Shown piece after piece: positions 1 through 13,304 of a stretch of 14,040 nt of DNA (its first letter is position 1; the number at the start of each line of letters is the position of its first letter). Source of the DNA: Rhodoferax sp. GTDB lineage: Bacteria > Pseudomonadota > Gammaproteobacteria > Burkholderiales > Burkholderiaceae_C. The notes beneath the pieces were generated by a model that saw nothing but the letters and a program-made list of their open reading frames with translations, did not search any database and was not told where the DNA came from. The stretch is from contig JAKFXU010000202.1 of the NCBI GenBank assembly GCA_021731215.1, forward strand, positions 1 through 14,040, read 5' to 3'. The position numbers and the translations under genes are program-made.

Positions 1-555
1 GATGATGACGGTGCAGCCGGCGGCCAGCGCCGGCGCCACCTTGCGCGTGATCATGGCCAGCGGAAAGTTCCAGGGCGTGATGGCGGCGCACACGCCGATT
101 GGCTGCTTGATCACCAGCAGGCGGCGGTTGTTGTCGAACTGCGGCAGGGTCTCGCCATTGACGCGCTTGGCTTCCTCGGCAAACCATTCGACAAAACTGG
201 CGCCGTAGGCCACTTCGCCCTTGGCCTCGGGAAACGGCTTGCCCTGCTCGGCGGTCATGATGCGCGCCAGGTCCTCCTGGTTCGCCATCAGCAAGTCAAA
301 CCATTTGCGCAGGATGATGCTGCGCTCCTTGGCCGTTTTGCTGCGCCAGGCCGGCCAGGCGGCGTTGGCGGCGGCGATTGCGGCTTGTGCCTGCGCCGGG
401 CCCAGGTTGGCGACATCGGCCAGCTTGTGGCCGGTGGCCGGGTCGAGAATGTCAAAGCGGCTGCTGCCTGCCACCCACTGGCCGTTGATCAGCGCGTCGG
501 TCTTGAGCAGGGTCGGGTCTTTGAGCAGCGAAAGGGGAGAAGTCTTCGTGTTCAT
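1..555 (-). CDS. gabD: NAD(P)-dependent succinate-semialdehyde dehydrogenase, N-terminal part (cut by window edge)
   Basis: Aldehyde dehydrogenase family. It is expected to oxidise succinate semialdehyde to succinate in the cytoplasm, the last step of GABA breakdown. Only the first 185 codons lie in the window; the frame is open to position 1. Visible family features are the early LINGQWV stretch, ILDPATG, the MTAEQGKP segment, GEVAYGASFVEWFAEEA, and the cofactor-domain motif PWNFP followed by a lysine-rich KVAPALAAGCT stretch. The catalytic cysteine and glutamate lie beyond the edge. The ATG at 555 is preceded by a GAGGA ribosome site 7 nt away. It lies 10 bp after the cupin gene and downstream of gabT, which supports the GABA assignment. 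If the imported substrate is a C5 lactam, it could act as glutarate-semialdehyde dehydrogenase instead. The family is certain; the exact substrate is inferred from the neighbours. Confidence 0.9.
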   Translation of the reverse strand, partial: MNTKTSPLSLLKDPTLLKTDALINGQWVAGSSRFDILDPATGHKLADVANLGPAQAQAAIAAANAAWPAWRSKTAKERSIILRKWFDLLMANQEDLARIMTAEQGKPFPEAKGEVAYGASFVEWFAEEAKRVNGETLPQFDNNRRLLVIKQPIGVCAAITPWNFPLAMITRKVAPALAAGCTVII

Positions 556-565
556 GTCTTGATCC

Positions 566-847
566 TCAGCGCATTTCCACCTCGACGAAGATGACTTCGT
601 CGGGGCCGGGGTTGATGACGTTGTGGCTCACGCCAATGTGGCGGGCGTAGGAACGGCCCTTGACCAACTGGCTGGTCTTGATGCCTTCGTCTGTCTCCAA
701 CTGCAGGTTGCCGTCGGTCATGGGCACGATCACGTAGTCGTGTGCGTGGGTGTGCCAGCGGGTCTCGGCGCCGGGTGGAAAACGCCACTCGGTAACGATG
801 ACACGTTCATTGTCGATCTGCACTGTGGGGATGGCCTGAGGTCTCAT
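566..847 (-). CDS. small single-domain cupin protein
   Basis: A 93-residue protein that is almost entirely one cupin barrel. Cupin motif 1 is visible at about residues 24-45 (PPGAETRWHTHAHDYV... ending in DG), with three histidines in HTHAH. The glutamate usual in this motif is not obvious. Motif 2 is at about residues 66-80, with histidine and asparagine in VSHNVIN. The ATG at 847 has AAGGA six nt upstream. It sits 31 bp after gabT and 10 bp before gabD in the same direction, so it is probably co-transcribed and tied to the pathway. Small cupins of this kind may be metal-dependent enzymes, isomerases or ligand sensors; nothing in the sequence decides which. The fold is confident and the function unknown. 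Confidence 0.85.
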   Translation of the reverse strand: MRPQAIPTVQIDNERVIVTEWRFPPGAETRWHTHAHDYVIVPMTDGNLQLETDEGIKTSQLVKGRSYARHIGVSHNVINPGPDEVIFVEVEMR

Positions 848-878
848 CTCACGTCCTTATGTATCGGGTGCAAAAGGC

Positions 879-2180
879 TTATGCCGCCGCAGTCAGAGCG
901 TCCAGCGACGTAGCGATGATGGCTAGGCCTTCGTCGAGCAGCGCGTCGCTGGCGGTCAGCGGCACCAGGATGCGTACCACGTTGCCGTAGGTGCCGCAGG
1001 TCAGGATGATCAGGCCGCGTCGCGTCGCCTCGGCGGCCAGCGCCTTGGTCAGCTCGGAGTCGGGCTGTTGCGGGTCGCCATTCTTGCACAATTCCATGGC
1101 CACCATGGCGCCCAGACCACGCACCTCGGCGATGCAGCTATGGCGTTGGGCCAGTCCTTTCAGACTCGCGGTGATGCGCTGGCCCAGGTCGCGGCTGCGC
1201 TGCAGCAGGTCGTGTTTCTCGAACTCATCCAGCACCGCCAGCGCGGCTGCGCAGGCCACTGGACTGCCGGCGTAGGTGCCACCCAGGCCGCCCGGTGCGG
1301 ATGCGTCCATCACCTCGGCACGGCCCACCACCGCAGAGATCGGAAAGCCGCCCGCCATGGATTTGGCCGTGGTGACCAGATCAGGCGCTACGGGCCACTG
1401 CTCACTGGCGAACCATGTGCCGGTGCGCCCGACACCGGTTTGGATCTCGTCGGCAATCACCAAAATGCCGTGACGATCAGCGATGGCACGCAGGCCTTCC
1501 ACAAAATCGTTTGGAGCGATATAAAAGCCCCCTTCGCCTTGCACGGGTTCGAGGATGAAGGCGGCAACACGGGTAGGCTCGATATCGTTCCTGAACAGGG
1601 TCTCGACAGAGTGCAATGCATCGTCCACCGAAATCCCATGAAGTGGGTTGGGGAACAACGCGTGAAAGATCTCGCCGGGAAACGGGCCAAAGCCGATCTT
1701 GTAGGGTGCCACCTTACCGGTCAGGCCCAGCGTCATATTTGTGCGGCCATGGTAGCCACCGGTGAATGCGATCACGCCCGGCCGCTGGGTATGGGCGCGC
1801 GCAATTTTGATGGCGTTTTCCACCGCTTCGGCGCCTGTGGTGAGAAGCAGCGTCTTCTTGGCGAAGTCGCCCGGCGCCTTGGCGTTGATGCGCTCGGCCA
1901 GTTCCACGTAGGGCTCGTAGGCCAGCACCTGAAAGCAGGTGTGGGTGTAGCGGTCGAGTTGGGCCTTCACCGCGTCGATCACGGCGGTGTTGCGGTGCCC
2001 GGTGTTGAGCACCGCAATACCACCGGCGAAGTCGATGTAACGGCGCCATTCCACGTCCCAGACCTCGGCGTTGTCGGCACGACTCACAAAGATTTCATGC
2101 GCTTGGCCGACACCGCGGGCTACGGCCGCATGGCGGCGCACCATCAGTGCCGAATTGGCGGCGTTTTCTTCTCGTTTCAT
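879..2180 (-). CDS. gabT: 4-aminobutyrate--2-oxoglutarate aminotransferase
   Basis: A class-III, PLP-dependent aminotransferase of 433 residues, close to the usual 425-430. It transfers the amino group of GABA to 2-oxoglutarate, giving succinate semialdehyde and glutamate in the cytoplasm. Visible features are the N-terminal substrate region (FAGGIAVLNTGH, about 51-62), the phosphate-binding TTGAEAVENAIK (about 114-125), FTGGYHGRT (about 139-147), EPVQGEGG (about 211-218), the PLP-aspartate in VIADEIQTGVGRTG (D244) and the Schiff-base lysine in TTAKSMAGG (K273). The ATG at 2180 has GGAG 5 nt upstream. It follows the permease gene by 38 bp and precedes the cupin and gabD. 5-Aminovalerate aminotransferase (DavT) is a close relative and cannot be excluded by sequence alone. 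Confidence 0.93.
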   Translation of the reverse strand: MKREENAANSALMVRRHAAVARGVGQAHEIFVSRADNAEVWDVEWRRYIDFAGGIAVLNTGHRNTAVIDAVKAQLDRYTHTCFQVLAYEPYVELAERINAKAPGDFAKKTLLLTTGAEAVENAIKIARAHTQRPGVIAFTGGYHGRTNMTLGLTGKVAPYKIGFGPFPGEIFHALFPNPLHGISVDDALHSVETLFRNDIEPTRVAAFILEPVQGEGGFYIAPNDFVEGLRAIADRHGILVIADEIQTGVGRTGTWFASEQWPVAPDLVTTAKSMAGGFPISAVVGRAEVMDASAPGGLGGTYAGSPVACAAALAVLDEFEKHDLLQRSRDLGQRITASLKGLAQRHSCIAEVRGLGAMVAMELCKNGDPQQPDSELTKALAAEATRRGLIILTCGTYGNVVRILVPLTASDALLDEGLAIIATSLDALTAAA

Positions 2181-2218
2181 AAGGACTCCAAAGTGGTTTC
2201 TAAGACTGTTCAGCGAAT

Positions 2219-3262
2219 TCAGTTCGCGTTGGGCAAGATCATCTGTTGGCGAAACTTGTCGGCAACCACAGCGATGATCAGAAGCAGGCCCAACACCACC
2301 ATCTGCAGGTAGGAACCAACATTGGTCAGGTTCATGCCGTTTTGCACTAAGCCAATGAAGATGGCACCCAGCACCACATTGGGAACACGCCCAATACCGC
2401 CGCGCAAGCTGACCCCAGCAATGACGCAGGCCGCAATTGATTCGAGCGCGATGGTGCCGCCCAGGTTCGCCTCACCGGTCTCAACCCGGGCCGTCAATAG
2501 CAGGCCGCTGATGGATGCCAATACCGCACACATCAGGTAAGCCGTCAGCAGCACCTTTCGCGTATCAATGCCCGAAAGCGCAGCCGCCTTCGCATTTCCC
2601 CCCACGGCCAACAAGTAAGTGCCGGTGGGCAGCCGGTTCATCAACAGGTGGACGGCAAGTACGCACACAACAGTGACCAACACTGGAATCGGCAGACCGA
2701 GGACGGTGCCGAATCCAAACAGATCACTAAAGGCTGGCGGCAGGCGGTTCACTGGAACTCCTCCCGTGAGGTAGAGTGCCGCGCCAAAACCGATGGACTG
2801 CACGCCCATGGTCATGATGAATGGAGACACGCCAGCCCAAGCGACGCCCAAGCCATTGAGCAGTCCAACGAGCGCACCGGCCATCAATCCGGCCATACAG
2901 CCCGCAACGATGACCAGACCGACCATGTCAGGTAGGCTACTGCCCAGGGTCTGCATGACCATTGCAGAAACCACCGAGGTCAATGCCATGATGGTCCCTA
3001 CCGAAAGGTCAAAGCCACCTGTGACCAAGACCAGCATTTGCGCCGTGGAAACCAGGATCAGGTAGACCGATTGACGCAGCAGGTTCATCAGGTTCTGCGC
3101 GGAGAGGAATTGGTCAGACAGCGTTCCAAACACGATCACAGCGAGTACCAACATGAAAGGAAGGACACCCAGACGGACAAACAGTCGACGCGCACCCCAG
3201 GACACCCGTTCAGTGAAAGAAATAGAGGCCGCAGGCGAGGCAGTGGCGTTAGGGGTATTCAT
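2219..3262 (-). CDS. ABC transporter permease, ribose/sugar (RbsC) type
   Basis: Inner-membrane permease of 347 residues in the branched-chain/ribose transporter superfamily. The protein is a run of hydrophobic segments from about residue 32 to the C-terminus. The family hallmark AVGGNAKAAALSGIDTRKV, the cytoplasmic coupling loop that contacts the ATPase, lies in the second half, followed by ESIAACVIAGVSLRGGIG. I chose the ATG at 3262, although the frame stays open to 3355, because its ATGA overlaps the stop of the ATPase gene (4-bp overlap, translational coupling) and it gives a normal RbsC-like N-terminus. Only one permease gene is present, so it probably works as a homodimer with the neighbouring two-domain ATPase and the TorT-like binding protein. 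The solute is probably not a sugar, given the surrounding genes; this is inferred. Confidence 0.92.
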   Translation of the reverse strand: MNTPNATASPAASISFTERVSWGARRLFVRLGVLPFMLVLAVIVFGTLSDQFLSAQNLMNLLRQSVYLILVSTAQMLVLVTGGFDLSVGTIMALTSVVSAMVMQTLGSSLPDMVGLVIVAGCMAGLMAGALVGLLNGLGVAWAGVSPFIMTMGVQSIGFGAALYLTGGVPVNRLPPAFSDLFGFGTVLGLPIPVLVTVVCVLAVHLLMNRLPTGTYLLAVGGNAKAAALSGIDTRKVLLTAYLMCAVLASISGLLLTARVETGEANLGGTIALESIAACVIAGVSLRGGIGRVPNVVLGAIFIGLVQNGMNLTNVGSYLQMVVLGLLLIIAVVADKFRQQMILPNAN

Positions 3263-4767
3263 GACTGGCCTTCCTTGGTACCAAAAAATAAACTCAATAG
3301 GCCACTCTCGGTGATCTCGGGGCCCTGCAACTCCCCCATCACCTCGCCGCGGCACATCACATAGGCCCTGTGGGCCAGGTGCAGAACTTCGGGCAGATCG
3401 GAAGAAATCAATACCACCGCAGCACCACCTTCACACAGTTGCTTGATCACTCCGTACAGTGCCGAGCGCGTCCCCACGTCAACACCAACCGTTGGCTCAT
3501 CGAACACGTACAAGGCCATTTTGTTGGTCAGTCCCTTGGCAAACAGCGCCTTTTGCTGGTTGCCACCAGACAGCAGTCCGACTGCTTTGCTCATATTCCG
3601 GGCAGTGAGTTCGACCTGATCGCCCGCCTTGGTAGCCAAGCCCCGCAAGTCCTTCTTGCGCAACCACCCGCCCAGCCCCCGCAGTGGACCGTCCAAAACT
3701 GGCAAGGTGATGTTGGAGGCGCTGCTGAATCCCAGTACCAGGCCTTCGGATTTGCGGTCTGGTGGCAAATAGAAGTATCCCAACTTCAAACTTTGTGCAG
3801 TGTTGGCATGGGTATGGTCCTGCCCTTTAAGTATCACTTTTCCATGAGTAACAGAGTCAAGGCCGTAAGCCGCGCGCAGCACCTCTGACTTGCCGCAACC
3901 CACCAGACCCGCAAGCCCCACCACTTCACCGCGACGCGCAGTAATGGACGCATTGAGCACTCCGCTGCGGGTGCTCAAGTTCTGGATTTCAAGAACCACC
4001 TCACCAGGGCGAGACTCGATGTGTGGGTAGATCTTTTCAATCGTCCGACCACTCATCAAAGTGATGAGTTGATCGTGCGTGGTCTGGGCAGCTTTCACCG
4101 TGCAGACTTTGCGACCATCGCGCAGCACCGTCACGCGATCCGCGATCTGAGATATCTCCTGCATTCGGTGCGAGATATACACAACGCCCACGCCTTGTTC
4201 CTTCAGTCGCCCAATGAGAGCGAACAGATTGGCGGTTTCACGCTCGGTCAGAGAAGCCGTAGGTTCATCGAGAATAAGCACCGATACTTGTCCACGCAAT
4301 CCTTTGGCAATCTCCACCATTTGTTGCTGAGCCCGGCTGAGGGTCGCAACAAGCGCCGAAGCGTTGACCTCAAAGCCCAACTCGTCAAGGCTGCTTTGGG
4401 CACGCTTCAAAAGCCCCTGCTTATCCAGCATGCCCTTGTGCAAAGGTTCTTCGCCAAGGCACAGGTTTTGTGCAACCGTAAGGGTTGGAATCAGCGAAAA
4501 CTCCTGAAAGACTGCGCTGATCCCCTCCATGCGAGCGTCATGGACGTTGCCAAAGTGCTTGGCGACGCCTCGCACATGGATGCTGCCTGCGCTTGGAGTG
4601 TTGGCCCCCGCAAGCAGCGAGATCAGCGTAGATTTTCCCGCACCGTTCTCGCCAAACAGCACATGCACTTCGCCTGCCAACAGGTCAAAGTCCACCGAGT
4701 CCAGGGCACGAACACCAGGGTAGAACCTGGACAGACCTTCAGTATGCAAAAGATGAAAATCGTTCAT
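3259..4767 (-). CDS. ABC transporter ATP-binding protein, two nucleotide-binding domains (RbsA/MglA type)
   Basis: Cytoplasmic ATPase of 502 residues, the normal length for RbsA/MglA-type proteins. It powers uptake through the adjacent permease. First domain: Walker A GENGAGKST (residues 39-47), signature region LSRAQQQMVEIAKGL, Walker B VLILDEPTAS. Second domain: a degenerate Walker A (GLVGCGKSE), signature LSGGNQQKALFAKGL and Walker B LYVFDEPTVGVD. The altered second Walker A and the altered first signature are normal for this subfamily, where usually only one ATP site is fully active. The gene starts 23 bp after the binding-protein gene and overlaps the permease start by 4 bp. No strong ribosome site is visible before the ATG at 4767. 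Confidence 0.94.
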   Translation of the reverse strand: MNDFHLLHTEGLSRFYPGVRALDSVDFDLLAGEVHVLFGENGAGKSTLISLLAGANTPSAGSIHVRGVAKHFGNVHDARMEGISAVFQEFSLIPTLTVAQNLCLGEEPLHKGMLDKQGLLKRAQSSLDELGFEVNASALVATLSRAQQQMVEIAKGLRGQVSVLILDEPTASLTERETANLFALIGRLKEQGVGVVYISHRMQEISQIADRVTVLRDGRKVCTVKAAQTTHDQLITLMSGRTIEKIYPHIESRPGEVVLEIQNLSTRSGVLNASITARRGEVVGLAGLVGCGKSEVLRAAYGLDSVTHGKVILKGQDHTHANTAQSLKLGYFYLPPDRKSEGLVLGFSSASNITLPVLDGPLRGLGGWLRKKDLRGLATKAGDQVELTARNMSKAVGLLSGGNQQKALFAKGLTNKMALYVFDEPTVGVDVGTRSALYGVIKQLCEGGAAVVLISSDLPEVLHLAHRAYVMCRGEVMGELQGPEITESGLLSLFFGTKEGQS

Positions 4768-4790
4768 GCCGTTGGATTGCAGGTTCGGCC

Positions 4791-5873
4791 TTACTTGACC
4801 TGAAACGTTGGCTTGAAGGACGCTGGCGGCAGGATGTCGTCGAAGCGAACGGTTTTGTAGTTACTGGGGTCAACCACGAAGATTTTGGGTCCGACATGGC
4901 GCGTCAACTCTTTTCCTTCCAGCAAACGCACCGCCTGGTCGATCGCGACTCGTCCCTGAATCACCATGGAATCGGCGGGGGCTGCCAGAATTCGACCCGA
5001 CTCGATGCCTTGATAGACACCTGGTGTCATGTAAAAGGACAGCAGCTGCACTTTTTTGTCCAGCTTACGACTACGCAAAATACCCACTGCTGCTTCGGCG
5101 GTCACCGCGGTTCCCGCCACATAGGAGAGGTCGGGGTTGGCCTGCAACACGTCTTCCACCAGCTTGGACTGCGCTTCTTTGCCCGTATCGCCATATTTTG
5201 GGTCGAGCACCACCACGGCACTGCCCTTGATCGCATCCATGAATCCCTTGTGCGCCGCTTCTACCCAACCGGCACCGGCTGGGCCGGGAAACCAACCCAC
5301 CTTGACGGCAGGGCTGCCCGCTGGGTGTTTCTTGGCCAGGTATTCGCCGGTCGACTGCCCCATGGTGTAAAACGATACCAGCGACTTAGCCGAGACGTCG
5401 GGCGAACTGATGCCGTTGACGAGGTCCACCACGGGAATCTTCTTAGCCGCCAGTGATTTGACGAGATTGTTCAAACCGTCGCCAGAAATCGCGCCGATCA
5501 CCACCGCATTGGCGCCACGTGCCACGCAATCTTCGATTTGTGAAATCTGTTTGCTCAGGTTGGTGTAGCCACCTGCATCCACCAAGTTGAGCTTGACACC
5601 GAGGCGCTTGGATTCTTCAACCACGCCGTAGTTCACGCCTAACCAATAGGCGTCCTTCATGTGAGGGAAGGACACGCAAATATCCCATTTCTTGCTGGCT
5701 TTGGTCAGTGGCGTGTAGTCCATCATGACCTTTTTGCCATCTGCGGCAAAGGCAGGCTCGGTGGCTTCGGCCTTGTATGGGAACCAGTTGGCTGCGCTGA
5801 CGCTTTGCCATACGAGGCTGGCGCCGATGGCGATGCTGGCGGTCAGAATTCTGCGGGTGAAAGTGCGGTTCAT
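4791..5873 (-). CDS. TorT-like periplasmic substrate-binding protein of an ABC importer
   Basis: Periplasmic binding protein of 360 residues (Peripla_BP_4/type I fold). A Sec signal peptide is visible: arginines at 3, 7 and 8, a hydrophobic stretch to about residue 23, and likely cleavage after VSA at residue 27. The mature part closely recalls E. coli TorT, the periplasmic partner of the TMAO sensor TorS: compare WDICVSFPHMKDAYWLGVNYG, then DAGGYTNLSKQ, then VAGTAVTAEAAVG and LLSFYM, with the matching TorT stretches (from memory). No torS/torR or TMAO reductase genes are nearby. Instead an ATPase and permease follow 23 bp downstream, so here it most likely delivers the solute to the transporter. 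The ATG at 5873 has GGAG 6 nt upstream. Class is confident; ligand unknown, possibly a small amide or lactam. Confidence 0.88.
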   Translation of the reverse strand: MNRTFTRRILTASIAIGASLVWQSVSAANWFPYKAEATEPAFAADGKKVMMDYTPLTKASKKWDICVSFPHMKDAYWLGVNYGVVEESKRLGVKLNLVDAGGYTNLSKQISQIEDCVARGANAVVIGAISGDGLNNLVKSLAAKKIPVVDLVNGISSPDVSAKSLVSFYTMGQSTGEYLAKKHPAGSPAVKVGWFPGPAGAGWVEAAHKGFMDAIKGSAVVVLDPKYGDTGKEAQSKLVEDVLQANPDLSYVAGTAVTAEAAVGILRSRKLDKKVQLLSFYMTPGVYQGIESGRILAAPADSMVIQGRVAIDQAVRLLEGKELTRHVGPKIFVVDPSNYKTVRFDDILPPASFKPTFQVK

Positions 5874-5899
5874 TGTCGTCTCCTTGGGTTGTGAAAAAA

Positions 5900-6874
5900 T
5901 CAGATCAAAGCCTGGCGCTGATGCGCCAGACGGGTGCGTCGCTCGGCGCGGGCGGCCAGGGCTTGCGCCATGTCCACCTGGACAAAGCGTGCTGAGTGGT
6001 TGGGTTGCATCTGGGCAATGAGGTCCATGTCGGCACTGATGACCGTGCCCAACATGGCATAGCCACCACCGGACACGGCGTCCCGATGCAAGATGATTGG
6101 CTCGCGCCCCGCTGGTACCTGGATCGAGCCATAGGGGTAACCGGCATCCACGATGTTCGAGGGATCGGAGCCTGCACCAAAAGGTGGCGTGCGTTCATGA
6201 AACTTCAGCGGCGTGCCGCCTTTGTAGCGGTAGCCGATGCGGTCTGCTTCCGGTGCGACACGCCAAGTATCGGCAAAGAAGCTCTGCACCGATTCCACTT
6301 GCAGCCTGTGGAAATACAGGCCCGGCAATACCCTGAGCTGGACTTCTTTGGCCAGTGGCGTTCTCAGCGCGTCTGGCAAGGTTTTCCCGACCGTCGCGGG
6401 CGCCGTCGTCTGGCCCACCGGAAGTACATCGCCTGCTTGCAGCTTGCGGCCCTGCAAACCGCCAAAAGCCCCAAGACCGTAAGTGGACCGGCTACCCAGA
6501 ACCACGGGCACGTCAATGCCACCAGCCACCGCTATGTACAGGCGAGCACCCAGCTTGAAGAAGTCAAAGGACAGGCGATCTCCCGCTTTGACTGCAAAGC
6601 TGGTATTTCTTGCCACTTCGATCCCATTGAGCTTTGGCGTGGCTTGTGCGCCTGTCACTGCCAACACCGCATCGGCGTCAAAACGCAGCTCAGGGGCCAT
6701 CAGAGTACATTCCAGCACCGCAGCGTTGTCTGGGTTACCCACCAGCCAGTTCGCCTGAAGAAAGCACTCCTGGTCCATGGCGCCAGACAACGGGATGCCC
6801 AGGTGGTAGTAGCCAGGGCGACCAGCGTCCTGCACGGTAGTAGCCAATCCTGGCTTGAGCAGTTCAATTGCCAT
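5900..6874 (-). CDS. pxpC: biotin-dependent carboxyltransferase-type subunit, PxpC/KipA-like (urea-carboxylase CT C-terminal half)
   Basis: A 324-residue protein of the carboxyltransferase domain family, subdomain 2 (AHS2; also called KipA or PxpC). The family hallmark near the N-terminus is VQDAGRPGYYHLGIPLSGAMD (about residues 14-34). It should pair with the PxpB-like neighbour to form the lactam- or amide-handling active site. The C-terminal half contains DPSNIVDAGYPYGSIQV and REPIILHRDAVSGGG. As recalled, these match the SNI...AYAIGTV...PVILGPDGPS..GG pattern of urea carboxylase. The ATG at 6874 lies inside pxpB (11-bp overlap), so translation is likely coupled. Read alone, it would be called 5-oxoprolinase subunit C. 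With a biotin carboxylase and carrier in the operon, it is better seen as half of a carboxyltransferase. The true substrate is unproven. Confidence 0.88.
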   Translation of the reverse strand: MAIELLKPGLATTVQDAGRPGYYHLGIPLSGAMDQECFLQANWLVGNPDNAAVLECTLMAPELRFDADAVLAVTGAQATPKLNGIEVARNTSFAVKAGDRLSFDFFKLGARLYIAVAGGIDVPVVLGSRSTYGLGAFGGLQGRKLQAGDVLPVGQTTAPATVGKTLPDALRTPLAKEVQLRVLPGLYFHRLQVESVQSFFADTWRVAPEADRIGYRYKGGTPLKFHERTPPFGAGSDPSNIVDAGYPYGSIQVPAGREPIILHRDAVSGGGYAMLGTVISADMDLIAQMQPNHSARFVQVDMAQALAARAERRTRLAHQRQALI

Positions 6875-7760
6875 GGAGCACCTGCAAGAGTTCTTGGTTG
6901 TAGGAATCGGGGTTGACCAGAAATGCCCTCAGTGAAAACGTCACGGAGTGCATAGGCAACTGATAGGTTCCCGCGACGACCTCGTGGGTGATACGGTCGT
7001 ACTCGGCGCGGTCAATCGGTTTCCACTTGACGATGTCACCCGGCTTGAAGAACACCATCATGTCCTTCAGATAGGGCAGGCTTTGCGCCGGGTCGAAGAT
7101 CGGTGCGGGGGTCACACCAAACATCTGGTAGCCACCGGCGCCACGCACTGAGTAGATGCAACTAAAGCATCCACCGTGGCCTAGAGTGAGCTTGGGCGTG
7201 TCCGTGCGCGGGCTAAGGTATTTTGGAACTTCGAGCTGCCGTTGCTGCTCAACCATCTGAAACAGGAATGGCAGCCCCGCCACAAAGCCCACCATCGACA
7301 CAAACCAGGGCGACGATGAGTGCGCATGAATGAATTCGTTCACCGTTTGAAAGCCGTTGACCCGCGCCGCGTATTCCAGATCGGTGCTCTGGGGGTCTTG
7401 GTGGCGTTCACGGAAGCGCATCAAGGTCTCGTGCGTCCATGGGTCGTTGTAGAGCACGGGCACTTCGACGATGCGGGTCTGCAACTCCATCTCGGCATTG
7501 CCAATCGAGACCTCGATGTCCTGCAAGCTGCGCATCATCTGGTCCGGCGAAATAATGTCCGGGTCAAAGCGAACTTGGTATGACGCATTGGCCGGGCAGA
7601 TCTCTGTCACACCTTGGATTTCGCGCCCTCGCAGTTCGTTGCAAATGGCCATGCCTTTGAAGAAGGCAGGCAGCGACATAGATTCGCTGATTTCGACAAA
7701 AACATGCTCGTCACCCCCAAAGGTGTAGCGCGCCTTGCCCAAAGCTGTGGCTTGACTCAT
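6864..7760 (-). CDS. pxpB: carboxyltransferase-type subunit, PxpB/KipI-like, long urea-carboxylase-like form
   Basis: A 298-residue protein of the carboxyltransferase domain, subdomain 1 family (AHS1; KipI/PxpB). PxpB/KipI proteins are usually about 220-240 residues. The extra length includes a segment at about residues 98-145 (PVLYNDPWTHETLMRF, then DLEYAARVNGF) that resembles the CT domain of urea carboxylase. The later motif SCIYSVRGAGGYQMFG (residues 200-215) resembles the CIYGMEGPGGYQ.VG signature of urea carboxylases, and FFKPGDIVKW (about 237-246) its FRPGD segment. The ATG at 7760 has AAGGAG 7 nt upstream and its ATGA overlaps the end of the biotin carboxylase gene. The likely role is to transfer carboxyl from carboxybiotin to an amide nitrogen, together with the PxpC-like partner. 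Sequence resemblances are from memory of the family. Confidence 0.88.
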   Translation of the reverse strand: MSQATALGKARYTFGGDEHVFVEISESMSLPAFFKGMAICNELRGREIQGVTEICPANASYQVRFDPDIISPDQMMRSLQDIEVSIGNAEMELQTRIVEVPVLYNDPWTHETLMRFRERHQDPQSTDLEYAARVNGFQTVNEFIHAHSSSPWFVSMVGFVAGLPFLFQMVEQQRQLEVPKYLSPRTDTPKLTLGHGGCFSCIYSVRGAGGYQMFGVTPAPIFDPAQSLPYLKDMMVFFKPGDIVKWKPIDRAEYDRITHEVVAGTYQLPMHSVTFSLRAFLVNPDSYNQELLQVLHGN

Positions 7761-9169
7761 GCAGTGACTCCTTGTTTGGAAGCTGAAACAGGTTCGGACT
7801 GGTCAGTGGCCAACGGGTTCTCTGCCAGCCAGACTTCGAGAAAGCCGGTATGAAATTGCGCCGCCGCCACATCGGGTGCAGCGCATAGCGCCTGGTGCAA
7901 AGGCACCGTAGTCCGAACTCCCTCCACAACCAACTCACCTAAGGCACGTTGCATGCGCCGCAAGGCGCTGGAGCGGTCTGGTGCATGCACAATCAATTTA
8001 CCCAACAGCGAGTCGTAATAGGCTGGCACTGTGTAACCTGGATAAAGCATGGAGTCAAATCGCACGCCGGGGCCACCAGGCACCAACAATTGAGTCACCT
8101 TGCCTGGACTGGGCATGAAATTCTTGGCGGCGTCTTCAGCATTGATGCGAACTTCGATCGCTGAGCCGTTCAGTCGGATGTCTTGTTGCTGCAGACGCAA
8201 GGGCTCGCCAAGCGCTATGCGGATCATTTCCTGAACCAAGTCAACGCCAGTCACCATTTCAGTGATGGGGTGCTCAACCTGAATGCGGGTGTTCATCTCG
8301 ATGAAGAAGAATTCCTGCGAATCATCGTCGTACAGATACTCCAAAGTGCCAGCCCCACGATACGATACAGCGCGCGCCAGACGTAATGCGGACTCGCACA
8401 GCGCCGCGCGAGTAACCTCGTTGATGGCCGCAGACGGAGCCTCTTCCCATACTTTTTGGCGCCGACGCTGTAAGGAGCACTCACGCTCAAAGCAGTGCAC
8501 CACGCGCTCTCCGTCCCCCAGGATCTGGACTTCGATATGGCGTGCGCGCCGGATGAAACGCTCCAGATACACTGCGCCGTTGCCGAACGCAGCAGCGGCT
8601 TCAGCAGTTGCCAGGCCAAATTGCTGCCGCAGTTCATCCGCATTCTGTGCAACCCGGATGCCGCGACCGCCTCCGCCCGCTGAGGCCTTGATCATGATGG
8701 GAAAGCCGATATCTTTGGCTTGCGCGACGGCGTCATCCGCAGTCAACACCACATCAGCGCTGCCAGGGACGGTGGGCACGCCAGCACGCGTGGCGGCTGA
8801 CCTGGCAGCCGCCTTGTCACCCATGGTGCGAATGGCAAGCGGCGTTGGGCCAACAAACACCAGGCCAGCCTGTTCCACGGCCTCAGCGAACGCCGCGTTC
8901 TCAGACAAGAACCCGTACCCTGGATGGACGGCTCCGGCGCCACTTTCACGTGCAGCATCCAGCAAGGCGGGAATGCTCAGGTAGCTCTTGCTCGCATGAG
9001 CCGGACCGATTCGAACTGCAGTGTCGGCCATGCGCACGGCCAGACTGTCGGCATCGGCGTCGCTGTAAACCGCCACCGTGCGCAAACCCAGCTCTTTGGC
9101 CGCACGGATGATCCGAACCGCTATCTCGCCCCGGTTGGCGACCAGCAAAGTCTTGAATTTCGCTTCCAT
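7757..9169 (-). CDS. biotin carboxylase subunit (AccC-like)
   Basis: A 470-residue, stand-alone biotin carboxylase, slightly longer than AccC (about 450). It uses ATP and bicarbonate to carboxylate the biotin on the carrier protein. Features in order: N-terminal VANRGEIAVRIIRA (residues 10-23), HPGYGFLSEN (82-91), the ATP-grasp glycine loop ASAGGGGRGIR (162-172), RRRQKVWEEAPS (about 235-246) and the metal- and bicarbonate-site stretch FIEMNTRIQVEH (289-300). All expected catalytic residues seem present. It starts 12 bp after the small carrier gene and overlaps pxpB by 4 bp, so it belongs to a multi-subunit carboxylase with these neighbours, not to acetyl-CoA carboxylase; no accA/accD-type subunit is present. 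A weak ribosome site precedes the ATG. An automatic accC label would mislead. Confidence 0.94.
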   Translation of the reverse strand: MEAKFKTLLVANRGEIAVRIIRAAKELGLRTVAVYSDADADSLAVRMADTAVRIGPAHASKSYLSIPALLDAARESGAGAVHPGYGFLSENAAFAEAVEQAGLVFVGPTPLAIRTMGDKAAARSAATRAGVPTVPGSADVVLTADDAVAQAKDIGFPIMIKASAGGGGRGIRVAQNADELRQQFGLATAEAAAAFGNGAVYLERFIRRARHIEVQILGDGERVVHCFERECSLQRRRQKVWEEAPSAAINEVTRAALCESALRLARAVSYRGAGTLEYLYDDDSQEFFFIEMNTRIQVEHPITEMVTGVDLVQEMIRIALGEPLRLQQQDIRLNGSAIEVRINAEDAAKNFMPSPGKVTQLLVPGGPGVRFDSMLYPGYTVPAYYDSLLGKLIVHAPDRSSALRRMQRALGELVVEGVRTTVPLHQALCAAPDVAAAQFHTGFLEVWLAENPLATDQSEPVSASKQGVTA

Positions 9170-9181
9170 GATGATCTGGTT

Positions 9182-9430
9182 TCAATCCCTGATCACTACA
9201 GCCAATACCTGGCCTGGGTCCACCGGCTCGCCGCTGGGTGCTGAAAAACACTCAATGCGCCCAGCCGCATCGGCTGTTATTTCGTTGAACTGTTTCATCA
9301 CCTCGATCAGGCCAATGACATCGCCCACCTCGATGCGATCGCCTTCCGCCTTGTAGGGGGGCACGTCCGGACTTGAACTGCGGTAAAAGGTGCCAGGTAA
9401 GGGGCTGAGAATTTCGTGGGATAGGGACAT
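9182..9430 (-). CDS. minimal biotin carboxyl carrier protein
   Basis: An 82-residue protein consisting of little more than one biotinyl domain. It carries carboxybiotin between the biotin carboxylase and the carboxyltransferase subunits. LSPLPGTFYRSSSPDVPPY (residues 8-26) matches the front of AccB-type domains, and the biotin lysine is K46 in IEVMKQFNEI. The usual motif is EAMKM; here it is EVMKQ. The long N-terminal linker of AccB (about 70 residues) is missing. The frame is open further upstream, but I chose the ATG at 9430 because a GAGGAG site lies 5 nt before it and the upstream part would run into pxpA. It lies 35 bp after pxpA and 12 bp before the biotin carboxylase gene. Confidence 0.9.
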   Translation of the reverse strand: MSLSHEILSPLPGTFYRSSSPDVPPYKAEGDRIEVGDVIGLIEVMKQFNEITADAAGRIECFSAPSGEPVDPGQVLAVVIRD

Positions 9431-9435
9431 GTTGA

Positions 9436-9441
9436 CTCCTC
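9436..9441 (-). promoter_or_regulatory. ribosome binding site of the biotin carrier gene
   Basis: GAGGAG on the minus strand, 5 nt before the ATG at 9430. It decides the start, because the frame stays open to 9574 and would otherwise overlap pxpA. Confidence 0.75.
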
Positions 9442-9465
9442 TGAAATGAGCGTGATCGAAATGAC

Positions 9466-10239
9466 TTAGGCAGGCATGGGAAGGGGCGCAGCCACTGCAA
9501 TGCCATTGTCCGACAGCACGTGGCGCGTGGCTTGAATCAACGCCAGTGCGCCGGGCGTATCGCTGTGAATGCACACTGAGTCAAATTCGATAGCAATGGG
9601 TTGCCCATCCACCGTCTGCACAGTGCCTTGTTGGCAAGCTCTGAGCACTTTGGCGGCCACCGCTGCAGGGTCAAGCGCACCAACACGGCGTGTGAAGACA
9701 ATGGAACCAGTGCTGTCGTAGTCACGATCCGCATAGAACTCGCGCACCACGCGCAGACCCATCTCTTGCGCCACACGAAACGTCAGGGACTGGGCCATGC
9801 AGTAAAGAGATAGCGAAGGATCGATACGCTGGATGGCGTTGACCAGCGCGCGTGACATCGCTTCGTCCTGCGCCACATGCATATAAAGCGCACCATGGGG
9901 TTTGACGTGGCGCAGCGGCGCATTGTTCAAACGTGTGAACTCTCGAAGAGCACCCATCTGGTAGATGAAGTCATTGACCAGCTCATCCACACTGGAGCGG
10001 ATATGCCTTCGCCCAAAGCCCATAAGGTCGCGAAAGCCGGGATGCGCGCCAATGCCCACGCCGTGCTTGGCCGCCAGAACCACCATCTGCTGCATGATGT
10101 TCGGGTCACCCGCATGGAATCCGGTGGCGATGTTGGCCGAGCTGATCAAGGGCATGATTTCCACATCAACCCCGTCCCCGATCTGCCAAGGTCCAAAGCC
10201 TTCACCCATGTCGGAATTCAGGTCAATTGTTCGTTTCAT
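9466..10239 (-). CDS. pxpA: LamB/YcsF family protein, 5-oxoprolinase subunit A (PxpA)-like
   Basis: A 257-residue LamB/YcsF family protein, the usual length (about 250). In PxpABC this subunit works with PxpB and PxpC in ATP-dependent opening of 5-oxoproline. Visible hallmarks are [14 protein letters not shown] (5-18), [14 protein letters not shown] (33-46), [16 protein letters not shown] (63-78), [10 protein letters not shown] (about 109-118) and [12 protein letters not shown]. The acidic and histidine residues of these motifs line the presumed active site. It is the first gene of the operon, reading away from the LysR gene across a 133-bp control region. In this operon it probably supplies the hydrolysis step for the amide or lactam after carboxylation; that role is inferred. 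The ribosome site before the ATG at 10239 is weak. Confidence 0.92.
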
Positions 10240-10298: not shown

Positions 10299-10328
10299 TT
10301 CCCAATAACCATTGAAAAGCTTTATATT
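10299..10328 (+). promoter_or_regulatory. possible promoter of the lysR gene
   Basis: A -35-like TTCCCA (10299-10304) is followed, after 18 bp, by TATATT (10323-10328), five of six bases of the -10 consensus. Its end touches the palindrome at 10327-10348, an arrangement that would let the regulator repress its own gene. This is a sequence-only guess. No convincing sigma-70 promoter was found for the operon on the other strand, as is common for activator-dependent promoters. Confidence 0.35.
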
Positions 10329-10348
10329 TAGATATCCTGATATCTAAA
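10327..10348. promoter_or_regulatory. perfect palindrome, probable LysR operator
   Basis: Arms TTTAGATATC (10327-10336) and GATATCTAAA (10339-10348) are exact reverse complements separated by CT. The AT-rich dyad fits the T-N11-A pattern of LysR-family binding sites. It lies between the divergent pxpA and lysR starts, 25 bp before the lysR ATG and 88 bp before the pxpA ATG. It is a likely binding site for both autoregulation of lysR and control of the operon. Confidence 0.65.
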
Positions 10349-10372
10349 ATTTTGATGACCATAGGGTTTTCC

Positions 10373-11299
10373 ATGAGTTTTTCCATTCGTCAACTCAAGT
10401 ATTTCACTGCCGTGGCTGAGCTTGGGCGCATTTCTCAGGCGGCTGTACAACTCAACATTTCTCAATCGGCAGTGACAACGGCGGTAAGGGAGCTCGAAGA
10501 CACCCTGAATCAGCAGTTGATCGCACGTCATTCACATGGCGTTGAACTCACGGATGCCGGGCGGCGTTTCTTGAGCCATGCATACAACGTGCTTGCGGCC
10601 GTTGACGATGCGTTGCGCATGCCTGACAACGAAGCAACCGTCGAAGGCACGCTGACTCTGGCTGCCAGCTACACCGTCCTGGGCTACTTCCTGCCACATC
10701 ATCTTCAGCGCTTTGCACAGCGTCACCCAAAGGTTGAAGTAAAGGTGCACGAGGTTGTGCGTGAAGGTATCGAAGAAGGCCTGGTGACCGAGCGGTATGA
10801 CATGGGCGTGCTGCTGACGTCCAATGCGGTCTTGCATGAGCTCACATTGGAGACCTTCTTCGGCTCACAACGCCGCTTGTGGGTCCCTGCCAAGCACCCA
10901 ATGCTGGAGAAGGCCGATGTGACCTTGGCTGACATTGCGGCGGAGCCTTACATCATGTTGACCGTGGACGAGGCCGCCGCCACCACCTTGAAGTATTGGT
11001 CGAGTACGCCCTATTTGCCCAGCATCCGTTTGCGCACCAGTTCAGTCGAGGCTGTGCGCAGCATGGTAGCCAACGGCCAGGGAGTGACGATTCTGTCCGA
11101 CATGGTTTATCGCCCCTGGTCGCTGGAGGGCAAGCGAATTGAGACCATTAATCTGAAGGACAGCGTTCCGTCCATGAACATTGGCTTGGGATGGAAACAT
11201 GGTCGCGATCACTCGCCAGCCATGCAGGCCTTTAGAGACTATTTCAGGCAACTGTTCTTGGATCCGATATCCGGGAGGGCCGTCAAGGCGCGGCCGTGA
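10373..11299 (+). CDS. LysR-family transcriptional regulator
   Basis: A 308-residue LysR-type regulator, a normal family length. The N-terminal winged helix-turn-helix covers about residues 1-65: FSIRQLKYFTAVAELGRISQAA, SQSAVTTAVRELED and GVELTDAGRRFL. The rest is the inducer-binding, periplasmic-binding-protein-like domain (about 90-300). The frame is open a few codons upstream from a TTG at 10352, but I chose the ATG at 10373 because MSFSIRQLKYF matches the family N-terminus and AGGG lies a few bases before it. It is divergent from the eleven-gene operon and shares a control region holding a perfect palindrome. It is therefore the likely regulator of that operon, probably responding to the imported substrate or an intermediate. 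The inducer is unknown. Confidence 0.93.
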   Translation: MSFSIRQLKYFTAVAELGRISQAAVQLNISQSAVTTAVRELEDTLNQQLIARHSHGVELTDAGRRFLSHAYNVLAAVDDALRMPDNEATVEGTLTLAASYTVLGYFLPHHLQRFAQRHPKVEVKVHEVVREGIEEGLVTERYDMGVLLTSNAVLHELTLETFFGSQRRLWVPAKHPMLEKADVTLADIAAEPYIMLTVDEAAATTLKYWSSTPYLPSIRLRTSSVEAVRSMVANGQGVTILSDMVYRPWSLEGKRIETINLKDSVPSMNIGLGWKHGRDHSPAMQAFRDYFRQLFLDPISGRAVKARP

Positions 11300-11437: not shown

Positions 11438-11860
11438 TCAGGAACTGCGCCATGGGTTCAGGACCAGCACACCGGTGGGCTCAAAATCAGCCACGTTGCG
11501 CGTGACGACGGTCATGCCATGCACCAGCGCTGTCGCCGCGATGAGGCCGTCACGCACGGGACGAGGGTCTGGCACATGGAGGCGGGCGCTGCGCTGCGCA
11601 ACTGCGGTGTCGACGGACAGGATGCGGCCCGCAAAGGCGGGTAAGACCTGCGCATTCAGCCACGCCCGAAATAGGGCGCCTTGCGATGAGTCTCGGCGCT
11701 CGGCCAGCAACACGCCGATTTCCAGCTCCTGGATGCTGATCGCTGACAGATACAAATCGGTGGCTTCTACGCTGTCGGCCCAATCTGCCACGTGAGGGTC
11801 CGCTTTACCCAGACGGACCTTGCGCAACTCGGACACGACATTGGTATCGAGCAAGTACAT
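11438..11860 (-). CDS. type II toxin, PIN-domain ribonuclease (VapC/FitB family)
   Basis: A 140-residue PIN-domain protein, the normal toxin length. Such toxins are magnesium-dependent ribonucleases held inactive by the partner antitoxin. The acidic catalytic residues are all visible: D5 in LLDTNVVSEL, E45 in SIQELEIGV, D104 in VRDGLIAATAL and D125 in TRNVADF. The pattern LDTNVVSE...P...W is most like the FitB subgroup. The ATG at 11860 overlaps the antitoxin stop by one base (TGATG), typical of coupled toxin-antitoxin genes. It looks intact. The target RNA cannot be told from sequence. The pair sits outside the catabolic operon and seems unrelated to it. Confidence 0.92.
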   Translation of the reverse strand: MYLLDTNVVSELRKVRLGKADPHVADWADSVEATDLYLSAISIQELEIGVLLAERRDSSQGALFRAWLNAQVLPAFAGRILSVDTAVAQRSARLHVPDPRPVRDGLIAATALVHGMTVVTRNVADFEPTGVLVLNPWRSS

Positions 11861-12114
11861 CAGGACAAATCCGCCGTTTGCGCCAGATCGCGAAATGGCG
11901 GGATATCCAGTTCAATATCGTCGAGCCCGGGCAACGCCAGCAGATCGGCGATTTTCGTATGCATGCGGGTAATCTTCTTGTACTCTTCAAACGTCAGTAG
12001 CACATGCGCCGGTTGGCCGCGATCCGTGATGAACACCGGACCCGCCTGGGCCGCCTTTTTGGCCTTGCTGGCATCTTGGTTGAATTGGCGACTGGAAAGG
12101 GTTGTGATGGGCAT
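11860..12114 (-). CDS. type II antitoxin, Phd/YefM family
   Basis: An 84-residue antitoxin of the Phd/YefM family. It neutralises the PIN toxin encoded next and usually represses the shared promoter. The N-terminal DNA-binding part shows SSRQFNQDASKAKKAA (7-22), VFITDRGQPAHVLLTFEEY (about 27-45). The C-terminal tail, LALPGLDDIELDIPPFRDL, is the acidic toxin-binding segment. The frame is open to 12270, but the ATG at 12114 gives the family N-terminus MPITTLSSRQF and has AGGAG 7 nt upstream, so the longer form is rejected. Confidence 0.9.
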   Translation of the reverse strand: MPITTLSSRQFNQDASKAKKAAQAGPVFITDRGQPAHVLLTFEEYKKITRMHTKIADLLALPGLDDIELDIPPFRDLAQTADLS

Positions 12115-12121
12115 ATCAACA

Positions 12122-12126
12122 CTCCT
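12122..12126 (-). promoter_or_regulatory. ribosome binding site of the antitoxin gene
   Basis: AGGAG on the minus strand, 7 nt before the ATG at 12114. It decides between this start and the longer open frame reaching 12270. Confidence 0.7.
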
Positions 12127-12318
12127 GCCTGGGAATAATGTAGGCACGTTACCACAAAATTCCTTGCGCACAAATATAGGTAGCGATGCAGGTCCATTGC
12201 CCATCGACAGGTCCTTGCCAAAATCAGCCATCAGGGTCCGACACGCCCGGTTGTCAAGGACGCGCCACAAAACCGGCCCAGGCCAGCGCGTCGCGCTCGG
12301 GGTTACTCAGTCAGTGCT

Positions 12319-13005
12319 TCAGGCGCCATCGGCGCCCGGGCCCAGCACGCGGGCCAGAAAGACCGATAGATCGGCGATTTCGCGCGGATGCACGCTGTGC
12401 GCCATCGGGTAGCTATGCCATTGCACCGGGTAGCCCAGGCCGGCGAGCAAGTCGCGCGAGGCTTCGCCGCGGGCCGGTGCCACCACCGGGTCCTGGCTGC
12501 CGTGCGCCATGAAGATGGGGCTGGCGGCGTTGGCCGGGTGGCGCTCGGCGGCCAGGGTGTCGGCCAGCGGCAGGTAGCCCGACAAGGCCATGATGCCGGC
12601 CAGCCGCTGCCCAAAACGCAAGCCGATGTGCAGCGCCATGGCGCTGCCTTGCGAGAAGCCGGCCAGCACGATGCGCTGGTAGGGGATGCCGCGCGCTGCC
12701 TCCCACTCGATCAGCGCCGCAATGGCGCGCGCCGACTGCGCGATGCCGGCGCCGTCCTGGCGGCCCACCAGGTCGGCACCCAAAATGTCGTACCACGCCG
12801 GCATCACATAACCGCCGTTAATAGTGACCGCCAGGCTGGGGGCGTGCGGAAAGACGAAGCGGATCGGCGGGCAGTCGCCCAAGTCCAGTTCCGGCACCAA
12901 GCCGGCAAAATCATGGCCATCGGCGCCCAGGCCATGCAGCCAGATGACGGCAGCGGTGGGTTGCGGGGCGCTTTCAATTTCAAGGCGGGGCAGCAGGGTA
13001 TTCAT
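12319..13005 (-). CDS. alpha/beta-hydrolase carboxylesterase/phospholipase family
   Basis: A 228-residue cytoplasmic esterase of the Abhydrolase_2 family (carboxylesterase/lysophospholipase/acyl-protein thioesterase type). The catalytic triad is visible: nucleophile S118 in GFSQGSAM, D172 in HGSQDPVV and H203 in MAHSVH. The oxyanion-hole motif LHGLGADGHDF (23-33) and the FVFPHAP stretch (50-56) are typical. I chose the ATG at 13005; a TTG three codons earlier is possible but less likely. It hydrolyses short acyl esters; the natural substrate is not known. It stands alone, with about 200 bp to the antitoxin gene and the inverted-repeat element upstream. No link to the operon is apparent. Confidence 0.9.
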   Translation of the reverse strand: MNTLLPRLEIESAPQPTAAVIWLHGLGADGHDFAGLVPELDLGDCPPIRFVFPHAPSLAVTINGGYVMPAWYDILGADLVGRQDGAGIAQSARAIAALIEWEAARGIPYQRIVLAGFSQGSAMALHIGLRFGQRLAGIMALSGYLPLADTLAAERHPANAASPIFMAHGSQDPVVAPARGEASRDLLAGLGYPVQWHSYPMAHSVHPREIADLSVFLARVLGPGADGA

Positions 13006-13082
13006 GGCGCGCAAGTGTACCCAGTGTGGCAGCCAGCCTGGCGTGCAGCGTGCAGCGCCGCATCCGACCCGCGCCAGGGCGG

Positions 13083-13251: not shown

Positions 13252-13292
13252 AGGCAATCGCATTTCGTGTCAGTGGTTCATTCAACTGTTCC

Positions 13293-13298
13293 AGGAGG
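13293..13298 (+). promoter_or_regulatory. consensus ribosome binding site of the HNH gene
   Basis: AGGAGG, 6 nt before the TTG at 13305. This perfect site decides the unusual start. Confidence 0.85.
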
Positions 13299-13304
13299 CG
13301 TGTT

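What the first reader, a model, noticed from the sequence alone, without database searches (positions are those of the whole stretch)
1..10239. Candidate lactam (amide)-to-succinate operon: importer, biotin-dependent opening enzyme, gabT and gabD in one unit
Seen: eleven co-directional genes with gaps of 38 bp or less and three overlaps. They encode a complete ABC importer, a biotin carboxylase, a biotin carrier, two carboxyltransferase-like subunits, PxpA, GABA aminotransferase, a cupin and succinate-semialdehyde dehydrogenase. Known: PxpABC opens 5-oxoproline with ATP and needs no biotin parts; GabT and GabD turn GABA into succinate. Inference: the biotin enzyme opens a cyclic or acyl amide of GABA, with 2-pyrrolidinone the simplest candidate, feeding GABA to GabT/GabD. 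Alternatives are delta-valerolactam (to glutarate), 5-oxoproline, or ureido/guanidino derivatives of GABA. I do not know of a described biotin-dependent lactam-opening pathway of this make-up.
Basis: partly seen in the sequence, partly recalled or inferred. Interest (0 to 1): 0.85.

Follow-up and report, generated by a model that had tools for sequence, protein, structure and literature searches.

The report
Bacterial biotin-dependent lactam-to-succinate operon
This stretch of bacterial DNA carries a set of genes that most likely imports a small ring-shaped amide, opens the ring with a biotin-driven enzyme, and feeds the product into central metabolism; a similar route is known genetically in a mould, while the bacterial version appears untested.

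Summary
In detail: eleven co-directional genes (gabD cut off by the contig end), divergent from a LysR gene. Five (PxpA/LamB type, biotin carrier, biotin carboxylase, CT subunits CTB and CTA) form a core complete in 73 of 80 fetched relatives; six of the other seven are cut by contig ends. CTB is neither PxpB nor ordinary urea carboxylase but a third family: it misses the PxpB cut-off in 40 of 40 genomes and keeps, in 88 of 88 loci, the lysine proposed as general base in urea carboxylase (10 of 10 urea carboxylases have K, 10 of 10 PxpB-type proteins R). Of 40 core genomes, a list I chose, 20 also hold a PxpB over its cut-off. GabT lies within about 10 kb in 12 of 80 loci, in several lineages and arrangements, against about 0.2 expected; 68 of 80 lack it. 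Transporters vary. I infer N-carboxylation of a lactam, hydrolysis by the LamB-type protein, and GABA to succinate, with 2-pyrrolidinone the best candidate. The logic has a fungal precedent (Aspergillus nidulans lamA/lamB with gatA/gabA under AmdR), so it is a new bacterial variant of a known kind. Substrate and chemistry are inferred, not shown.

The parts
9466..10239 (-). pxpA/lamB-type gene (LamB_YcsF, PF03746); proposed amide hydrolase
   Evidence: 308.9 bits to PF03746; passes two PxpA subfamily models, misses three equivalog models
9182..9430 (-). biotin carrier protein (BCCP)
   Evidence: NF005457 115 bits over cut-off 87; EVMKQ motif; a motif of this kind somewhere in 83 of 88 loci
7757..9169 (-). 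biotin carboxylase (BC), one of three BC genes found in this draft genome
   Evidence: nine active-site positions (numbering recalled from E. coli BC) never replaced where aligned (83 to 85 of 85 loci)
6864..7760 (-). carboxyltransferase subunit CTB (PF02682), with K180 at the urea carboxylase general-base position
5900..6874 (-). carboxyltransferase subunit CTA (PF02626)
   Evidence: solved relatives K. lactis urea carboxylase 3va7 (167.7 bits) and YbgK 5dud (166.1) are equally near
4791..5873 (-). TorT-like periplasmic substrate-binding protein
   Evidence: NF008185 428 bits over cut-off 200; solved relative 4yhs (549.8 bits), then TorT 3o1h (193.6)
3259..4767 (-). sugar-type ABC transporter ATPase (two ABC domains)
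2219..3262 (-). ABC transporter permease (PF02653)
   Evidence: overlaps the ATPase gene by 4 bp
879..2180 (-). gabT, 4-aminobutyrate transaminase; second copy elsewhere in the genome is 74% identical
   Evidence: TIGR00700 571 bits over cut-off 506.65 (NF005985 665 under 713); best solved match E. coli GabT 1sf2
566..847 (-). small cupin protein, role unknown; a relative lies in 6 of 80 loci
   Evidence: PF07883 29.2 bits over 27.2
1..555 (-). gabD, succinate-semialdehyde dehydrogenase, first 185 codons only (contig end)
   Evidence: best model NF008415 over the part present; cut-offs cannot be judged on a fragment
10373..11299 (+). divergent LysR-type regulator (start moved to the ATG at 10373)
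   Evidence: divergent from pxpA in 63 of 80 related loci
10341..10357 (.). possible LysR operator TATC-N9-GATA with one mismatch; overlaps a 10-2-10 palindrome at 10327-10348
   Evidence: exact form in 41 of 81 LysR-pxpA gaps, shuffles 0.42 on average; a one-mismatch copy alone is weak (about 6 of 81 shuffled gaps have one)

Best explanation
The unit is a catabolic operon for a small cyclic amide with a free N-H, most likely 2-pyrrolidinone (the lactam of GABA). The TorT-like ABC transporter imports it. BC uses ATP and bicarbonate to carboxylate biotin on BCCP; CTA/CTB, acting like urea carboxylase with K180 as general base, move the carboxyl group onto the lactam nitrogen. The N-carboxylated, imide-like ring is then hydrolysed by the LamB/PxpA-type protein; the carbamate loses CO2 and leaves GABA. 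GabT and GabD turn GABA into succinate. LysR controls the unit. Shown: gene content, conservation, active-site residues, separation from 5-oxoprolinase, recurrent linkage to gabT/gabD, a conserved motif beside LysR. Inferred: lactam as substrate, which lactam, N-carboxylation as the activating step, role of each subunit, direction of transport, role of the cupin.
For: Complete five-gene core in 73 of 80 relatives. CTB below the PxpB cut-off in 40 of 40 genomes searched (a list I chose), of which 20 also have a PxpB over it. K180 aligns with K1605 of K. lactis urea amidolyase, described as most likely the essential general base of the CT reaction (PMC5770610, passages); K in 88 of 88 core CTBs, K in 10 of 10 urea carboxylases and R in 10 of 10 PxpB-type proteins (classes checked with family models). 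BC residues kept. A clean BC-CTB fusion, P0131. gabT in 12 of 80 loci against about 0.2 expected, plus three of 21 plasmid loci; in Agrobacterium sp. T29 gabT and gabD come next after the core. Other neighbours fit a cyclic amide: NCS1 permeases (annotated 'allantoin permease') in 34 of 80, HyuA/HyuB in 12 of 80; BioB near the core in 11 of 80. Fungal precedent. 2-Pyrrolidinone arises by cyclization of GABA (PMC6517487, passage).
Against: gabT is absent from 68 of 80 loci and gabD from 74 of 80; 0 of 34 NCS1-type loci carry gabT, so the substrate may differ between lineages or GABA use may rest on genes elsewhere. No copy of the LysR motif, up to one mismatch, within 300 bp before gabT in 13 loci. 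CTB is only modestly nearer to urea carboxylase than to PxpB, and CTA is equally near to both. The importer is of the TorT/sugar class, which does not name a lactam. No assay, expression or growth data exist here. GabT/GabD-type enzymes may also take C5 homologues (recalled).
Confidence: 0.55

Rival explanations
1. Same enzyme chemistry, different cyclic amide: a substituted 2-pyrrolidinone, delta-valerolactam (giving glutarate through GabT/GabD-like enzymes), a hydantoin or another ureide; the GABA genes in the window reflect one of several routes.
For: Transporters near the core vary (TorT-like ABC 28, NCS1 34, polyamine-type ABC 7, none of these 11 of 80 loci). HyuA/HyuB, the ATP-dependent lactamase/hydantoinase family, in 12 of 80. 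A molybdenum hydroxylase set follows the ABC genes in Diaphorobacter HDW4B and Sulfitobacter alexandrii, as expected if a heterocycle is first oxidised to a lactam; but only 1 of 80 genome loci and 2 of 21 plasmid loci matched its large subunit.
Against: GabT passes TIGR00700 and the gabD fragment fits succinate-semialdehyde dehydrogenase best; no glutarate genes among the window's genes.
Confidence: 0.28
2. A divergent, biotin-assisted 5-oxoprolinase: the product is glutamate, and GabT/GabD are incidental or act after a decarboxylase.
For: The LamB-type protein passes two PxpA subfamily models; no other PxpA-family or CT_C_D gene was found in this draft genome.
Against: CTB, CTA and PxpA miss the equivalog cut-offs; lysine instead of arginine at the key CTB position; 20 of 40 chosen core genomes also keep a PxpB over its cut-off; C. 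glutamicum uses pxpTABC for 5-oxoproline (PMC13274462, title and start of abstract, passages). The draft genome is only 84.67% complete, so absence of a second set is weak evidence.
Confidence: 0.07
3. A urea, guanidine or ureido/guanidino-GABA carboxylase.
For: The best solved match of the CTB profile is urea carboxylase; CTA's best too, but by 1.6 bits over YbgK.
Against: No allophanate hydrolase/amidase gene among the window's genes; CTB is 24-29% identical to ten urea carboxylases of related genomes and scores 109 bits where their pieces score 358-494; a LamB-type partner takes the hydrolase place.
Confidence: 0.06
4. The biotin genes make an acyl-CoA carboxylase (as automatic annotation says) that happens to sit beside GABA genes.
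For: NCBIfam names the BC and BCCP 'acetyl-CoA carboxylase'.
Against: The carboxyltransferase is of the urea carboxylase/PxpBC type, not an acyl-CoA CT; the draft genome has two further BC genes.
Confidence: 0.04

Closest known systems
Aspergillus nidulans lamA/lamB lactam utilization, with gatA and gabA under AmdR
   Same: A urea carboxylase without amidase domain exists in A. nidulans (P38095, 1,241 aa; PMC3073912, passage; that P38095 is LamA is recalled), the PF03746 family bears the name LamB, and lactam and GABA genes share one regulator (PMC8016842, passage). That lamA/lamB serve 2-pyrrolidinone is recalled.
   Different: Bacterial genes are split into four biotin-enzyme subunits, carry their own importer and a LysR regulator, and lie in one operon with gabT/gabD. 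LamA's sequence was not compared here.
PxpABC 5-oxoprolinase
   Same: PxpA-family protein with CT_C_D and CT_A_B subunits; 5-oxoproline ring opening (PMC8453981, passage).
   Different: PxpABC needs no biotin genes (recalled); core CTB lacks the arginine of PxpB-type proteins, misses the PxpB cut-off, and coexists with PxpB in 20 of 40 chosen genomes.
Urea carboxylase / urea amidolyase
   Same: BC, BCCP and CT domains of the same kinds; general-base lysine kept.
   Different: No allophanate hydrolase in the window; a LamB-type protein instead; split genes; 24-29% identity in CTB.
CapAB caprolactamase and NmpAB (N-methylpyrrolidone) pathways
   Same: A lactam or imide ring is opened and the product passes by an aminotransferase (caprolactam) or amino acid oxidase and succinate-semialdehyde dehydrogenase (N-methylpyrrolidone) (PMC8453981, PMC6061476, PMC12866759; passages). 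One mechanism proposed for CapAB activates the lactim as a carboxyester, a distant cousin of the step proposed here.
   Different: Hydantoinase/oxoprolinase-type enzymes; no such gene in the window. N-methylpyrrolidone has no N-H and could not be N-carboxylated by the route proposed here.

Membership tests
A. nidulans-type LamAB lactam utilization | Biotin carboxylase, CT_A_B, CT_C_D and biotin carrier parts | tested here: met
   (that LamA itself has these parts rests on PMC3073912 plus recall)
A. nidulans-type LamAB lactam utilization | LamB/YcsF-family partner protein | tested here: met
   PF03746 308.9 bits over cut-off 22
A. nidulans-type LamAB lactam utilization | Linked to GABA catabolic genes | tested here: met
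   in the window; but only 12 of 80 relatives
A. nidulans-type LamAB lactam utilization | Closer in sequence to LamA than to urea carboxylase | not tested
   no LamA sequence in hand; none of the 40 proteins listed is named as fungal
A. nidulans-type LamAB lactam utilization | Use of 2-pyrrolidinone | not testable with these tools
   needs growth or enzyme assay
PxpABC 5-oxoprolinase | PxpB model TIGR00370 over its cut-off (145.55 bits) | tested here: not met
   73.3 bits; core CTBs of 40 genomes 62-78 bits
PxpABC 5-oxoprolinase | PxpC equivalog NF045499 over its cut-off (500 bits) | tested here: not met
   219.9 bits
PxpABC 5-oxoprolinase | PxpA models | tested here: inconclusive
   two subfamily models passed, three equivalog models missed
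Urea carboxylase / urea amidolyase | General-base lysine in the CT domain | tested here: met
   K180 = K1605; 88 of 88 core CTBs
Urea carboxylase / urea amidolyase | CT domain scoring like that of true urea carboxylases against TIGR02712 | tested here: not met
   109 bits against 358-494 bits for pieces of ten urea carboxylases
Urea carboxylase / urea amidolyase | Allophanate hydrolase domain or neighbour | tested here: not met
   none among the window's genes
ATP-dependent lactamases CapAB/HyuAB | Hydantoinase/oxoprolinase A and B subunits | tested here: not met
   no such domain among the window's genes
TorT TMAO sensor protein | TorT models | tested here: inconclusive
   NF008185 passed (428 over 200), TIGR02955 just missed (307.2 under 310); sits in an ABC operon, no sensor kinase among the window's genes

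The most novel reading that the evidence does not exclude
Proteobacteria, halophilic archaea and actinobacteria share a five-part biotin-dependent lactamase that opens amide rings by first carboxylating the ring nitrogen: a way of spending ATP on an amide bond different from the activated lactims (phosphate or carboxyester) proposed for CapAB, and explaining why LamB-family proteins stand beside biotin genes that are annotated as acetyl-CoA carboxylase. With the TorT-like ABC importer and GabT/GabD it makes a full 2-pyrrolidinone-to-succinate route.
Probability: 0.45. Interest if true: 0.75.

Novelty: new variant of a known kind. Interest (0 to 1): 0.58.

Why it matters
Hundreds of species genomes carry relatives of CTB (573, a capped scan), and such loci bear names such as acetyl-CoA carboxylase, allophanate hydrolase, TorT or 5-oxoprolinase. 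A correct reading would assign a function to this family, add a candidate lactam importer and regulator, give the old fungal lam genetics a testable biochemistry, and show a natural outlet for 2-pyrrolidinone, a cyclization product of GABA and (recalled) an industrial chemical.

Tried and rejected
Structure prediction of CTB gave mean pLDDT 56 and no confidence around the active site (147-237), probably because the 22 aligned sequences are too alike; no fold search was run on it. Two apparent fusions, P0152 (LamB-BCCP-BC-CTB) and P0156 (BC-CTB-CTA), carry stretches that look out of frame, so they are not counted; about 30 more listed proteins hold BC and CTB domains, but only P0131 was opened and found clean. 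The LysR motif was looked for before gabT in 13 loci and not found. A strict motif search for the CTB lysine found only 14 of 88 loci because the motif varies; the alignment-based count replaced it. Ten paper searches for a bacterial biotin-dependent lactamase showed none in the rows listed, but several lists were capped (for example 20 of 4,776, 30 of 228) and only open-licence PMC papers are held. My gene calls in the loci were unreliable (cluster 11 looks like the antisense shadow of CTB), so the counts come from tblastn.


Full report
Observation. Searches confirm eleven minus-strand genes between 10239 and base 1, with gaps of 38 bp or less and three overlaps. Domain and family searches give: LamB/YcsF protein (PxpA type), biotin carrier, biotin carboxylase, CT_C_D subunit (CTB), CT_A_B subunit (CTA), TorT-like binding protein, ABC ATPase, permease, GABA transaminase, a small cupin, and the first 185 codons of a succinate-semialdehyde dehydrogenase. 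The window is one entire contig of a draft genome (84.67% complete, 507 contigs). Three 'same genus' genomes have contigs of the same length as records titled Rhodoferax sp. (60166, 73125 and 14915 bases), so the source is probably Rhodoferax or close kin.

What the core is. A protein search with CTB scored 8,000 candidates (a cap) and kept 7,760; only the best 120 were listed. In these 80 loci CTB is in 80, CTA in 79, BC in 76, PxpA-type and BCCP in 75 each; all five in 73. Six of the seven incomplete loci are cut by a contig end; in the seventh (L051) no BC matched and only a short gap lies between BCCP and CTB. LysR matches in 68 of 80 and stands divergent within 700 bp of pxpA in 63 of 80. 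More distant relatives (CTB 50-55% in halophilic archaea, 44% in Rhodococcus jostii RHA1) keep the five genes within about 11 kb but not in one row; a Paenarthrobacter plasmid shows no BC or BCCP nearby.

Not 5-oxoprolinase, not ordinary urea carboxylase. CTB scores 73.3 bits against the PxpB model (cut-off 145.55) and 109.3 against urea carboxylase. In 40 genomes with the core (a list I chose) the core CTBs score 62-78 bits against PxpB, and 20 of the 40 also have a PxpB over the cut-off. A profile of eight core CTBs matches K. lactis urea carboxylase over positions 6-282 (73.7 bits); PxpB/KipI-type structures score 31-59 bits, most of them over the C-terminal half only. K180 aligns with K1605 of K. 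lactis urea amidolyase (position counted on the alignment), which a structural paper calls most likely the essential general base of the CT reaction (PMC5770610, passages). The residue is K in 88 of 88 core loci. Among 20 other CT proteins from the related genomes (those outside the core family for which a locus was kept), it is K in 10 and R in 10. Family models sort these 20 independently: the ten with K match urea carboxylase best (358-494 bits), the ten with R match PxpB best (seven over the cut-off, three under, some of them cut pieces). Nine BC active-site positions (numbering recalled) are unchanged wherever aligned (83 to 85 of 85 loci). A BCCP-type motif was found in 83 of 88 loci (whole loci scanned in six frames). 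A clean BC-CTB fusion exists (P0131). CTA, by contrast, is as near to YbgK as to urea carboxylase. So a working biotin carboxylase with a transferase that keeps the urea carboxylase lysine is well supported; an acyl-CoA carboxylase is not.

What it is for. GabT at 50% identity or more lies in 12 of 80 loci, gabD in 6 of 80. In the 40 chosen genomes there are 38 gabT matches in about 232 Mb (my sum); the 80 loci hold 1.46 Mb, so about 0.2 would be expected by chance. Five of the twelve are Variovorax and count as one lineage, but the arrangements differ: after the permease (Variovorax, L044, L072), between permease and pxpA with a cupin (L051), upstream on the other strand (Acidovorax temperans L074; Ruegeria TM1040), beyond another gene downstream (L110; Aestuarium), next after CTA (Agrobacterium T29), upstream on the same strand (L105), and with HyuAB and a cupin (L087). 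A Paenarthrobacter plasmid has the CT genes, two PxpA genes, two class III aminotransferase genes and an aldehyde dehydrogenase. The window's genome has a second gabT, 74% identical, on another contig, so the operon copy looks dedicated. Eleven of the 12 gabT loci have the TorT-like transporter; none of the 34 NCS1 loci has gabT. Against the reading: 68 of 80 loci have no gabT nearby.

Other neighbours. NCS1 permeases (annotated 'allantoin permease') are in 34 of 80, HyuA/HyuB in 12 of 80, a polyamine-type ABC set in 7 of 80, biotin synthase BioB in 11 of 80. Molybdenum hydroxylase genes follow the transporter in Diaphorobacter HDW4B and Sulfitobacter alexandrii, but not in Sulfitobacter THAF37, and a large-subunit match was seen in only 1 of 80 genome loci. 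These suit a small N-heterocycle or cyclic amide, but they also show that substrate or supply route may differ between lineages.

Regulation. The LysR-pxpA gap holds TATC-N9-GATA exactly in 41 of 81 gaps (63 genome loci, 17 plasmid loci and the window), against 0.42 on average in 50 shuffles; fourteen spacings were tried and only N9 stands out strongly. With up to one mismatch it is 64 of 81 against about 6. The window has a one-mismatch copy at 10341-10357, overlapping a perfect 10-2-10 palindrome. Shuffles ignore relatedness. The motif was not found before gabT in 13 loci.

Mechanism. By analogy with urea carboxylase, I propose N-carboxylation of the lactam, hydrolysis of the activated ring by the LamB-type protein, decarboxylation to the amino acid, then GabT and GabD. 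This is inference. It predicts that N-methylpyrrolidone, which has no N-H, is not a substrate; the known N-methylpyrrolidone route uses NmpAB, named N-methylhydantoin amidohydrolase (PMC12866759, passages).

Known or new. AmdR of A. nidulans controls amdS, gatA, gabA, lamA and lamB (PMC8016842, passage). A. nidulans has a 1,241-residue urea carboxylase without amidase domain, P38095 (PMC3073912, passages); that P38095 is LamA and that the lam genes serve 2-pyrrolidinone is recalled, not from a call. Ten paper searches showed no bacterial biotin-dependent lactamase in the rows listed; several lists were capped and only open-licence PMC papers are held. I therefore call it a new bacterial variant of a known kind.

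Noticed in passing
window 10327-10357 and LysR-pxpA gaps of related loci: TATC-N9-GATA motif exactly in 41 of 81 gaps; the window has a one-mismatch copy overlapping a palindrome.
   Followed up: partly
window 11438-12270, minus strand: A PIN-domain gene and a Phd/YefM-type antitoxin gene, probably a type II toxin-antitoxin pair.
   Followed up: no
window 12319-13014 minus and 13026-13862 plus: A phospholipase/carboxylesterase (PF02230) and an HNH endonuclease gene (PF14279) beyond the operon.
   Followed up: no
L112 15650-19423 and L117 15635-19264: A molybdenum hydroxylase set of the xanthine dehydrogenase family follows the TorT-like ABC genes, suggesting that a heterocycle may be oxidised to the lactam first.
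   Followed up: partly
L045, L071, L073, L076, L078, L081, L083, L084, L089, L092, L099 and L114: Biotin synthase BioB lies near the core, mainly in Burkholderia and on an Acidiphilium plasmid.
   Followed up: partly
L125 9971-12159 and 17478-19658, L126 7382-12210: Halophilic archaeal plasmids carry the five core genes with BC on the other strand.
   Followed up: no
L128 1-4746 and 9992-20537: In Rhodococcus jostii RHA1 the core lies near microcompartment shell genes, an aminotransferase and an aldehyde dehydrogenase.
   Followed up: no
L051 9571-10000: No BC between BCCP and CTB in this locus, so another BC may serve the enzyme.
   Followed up: no
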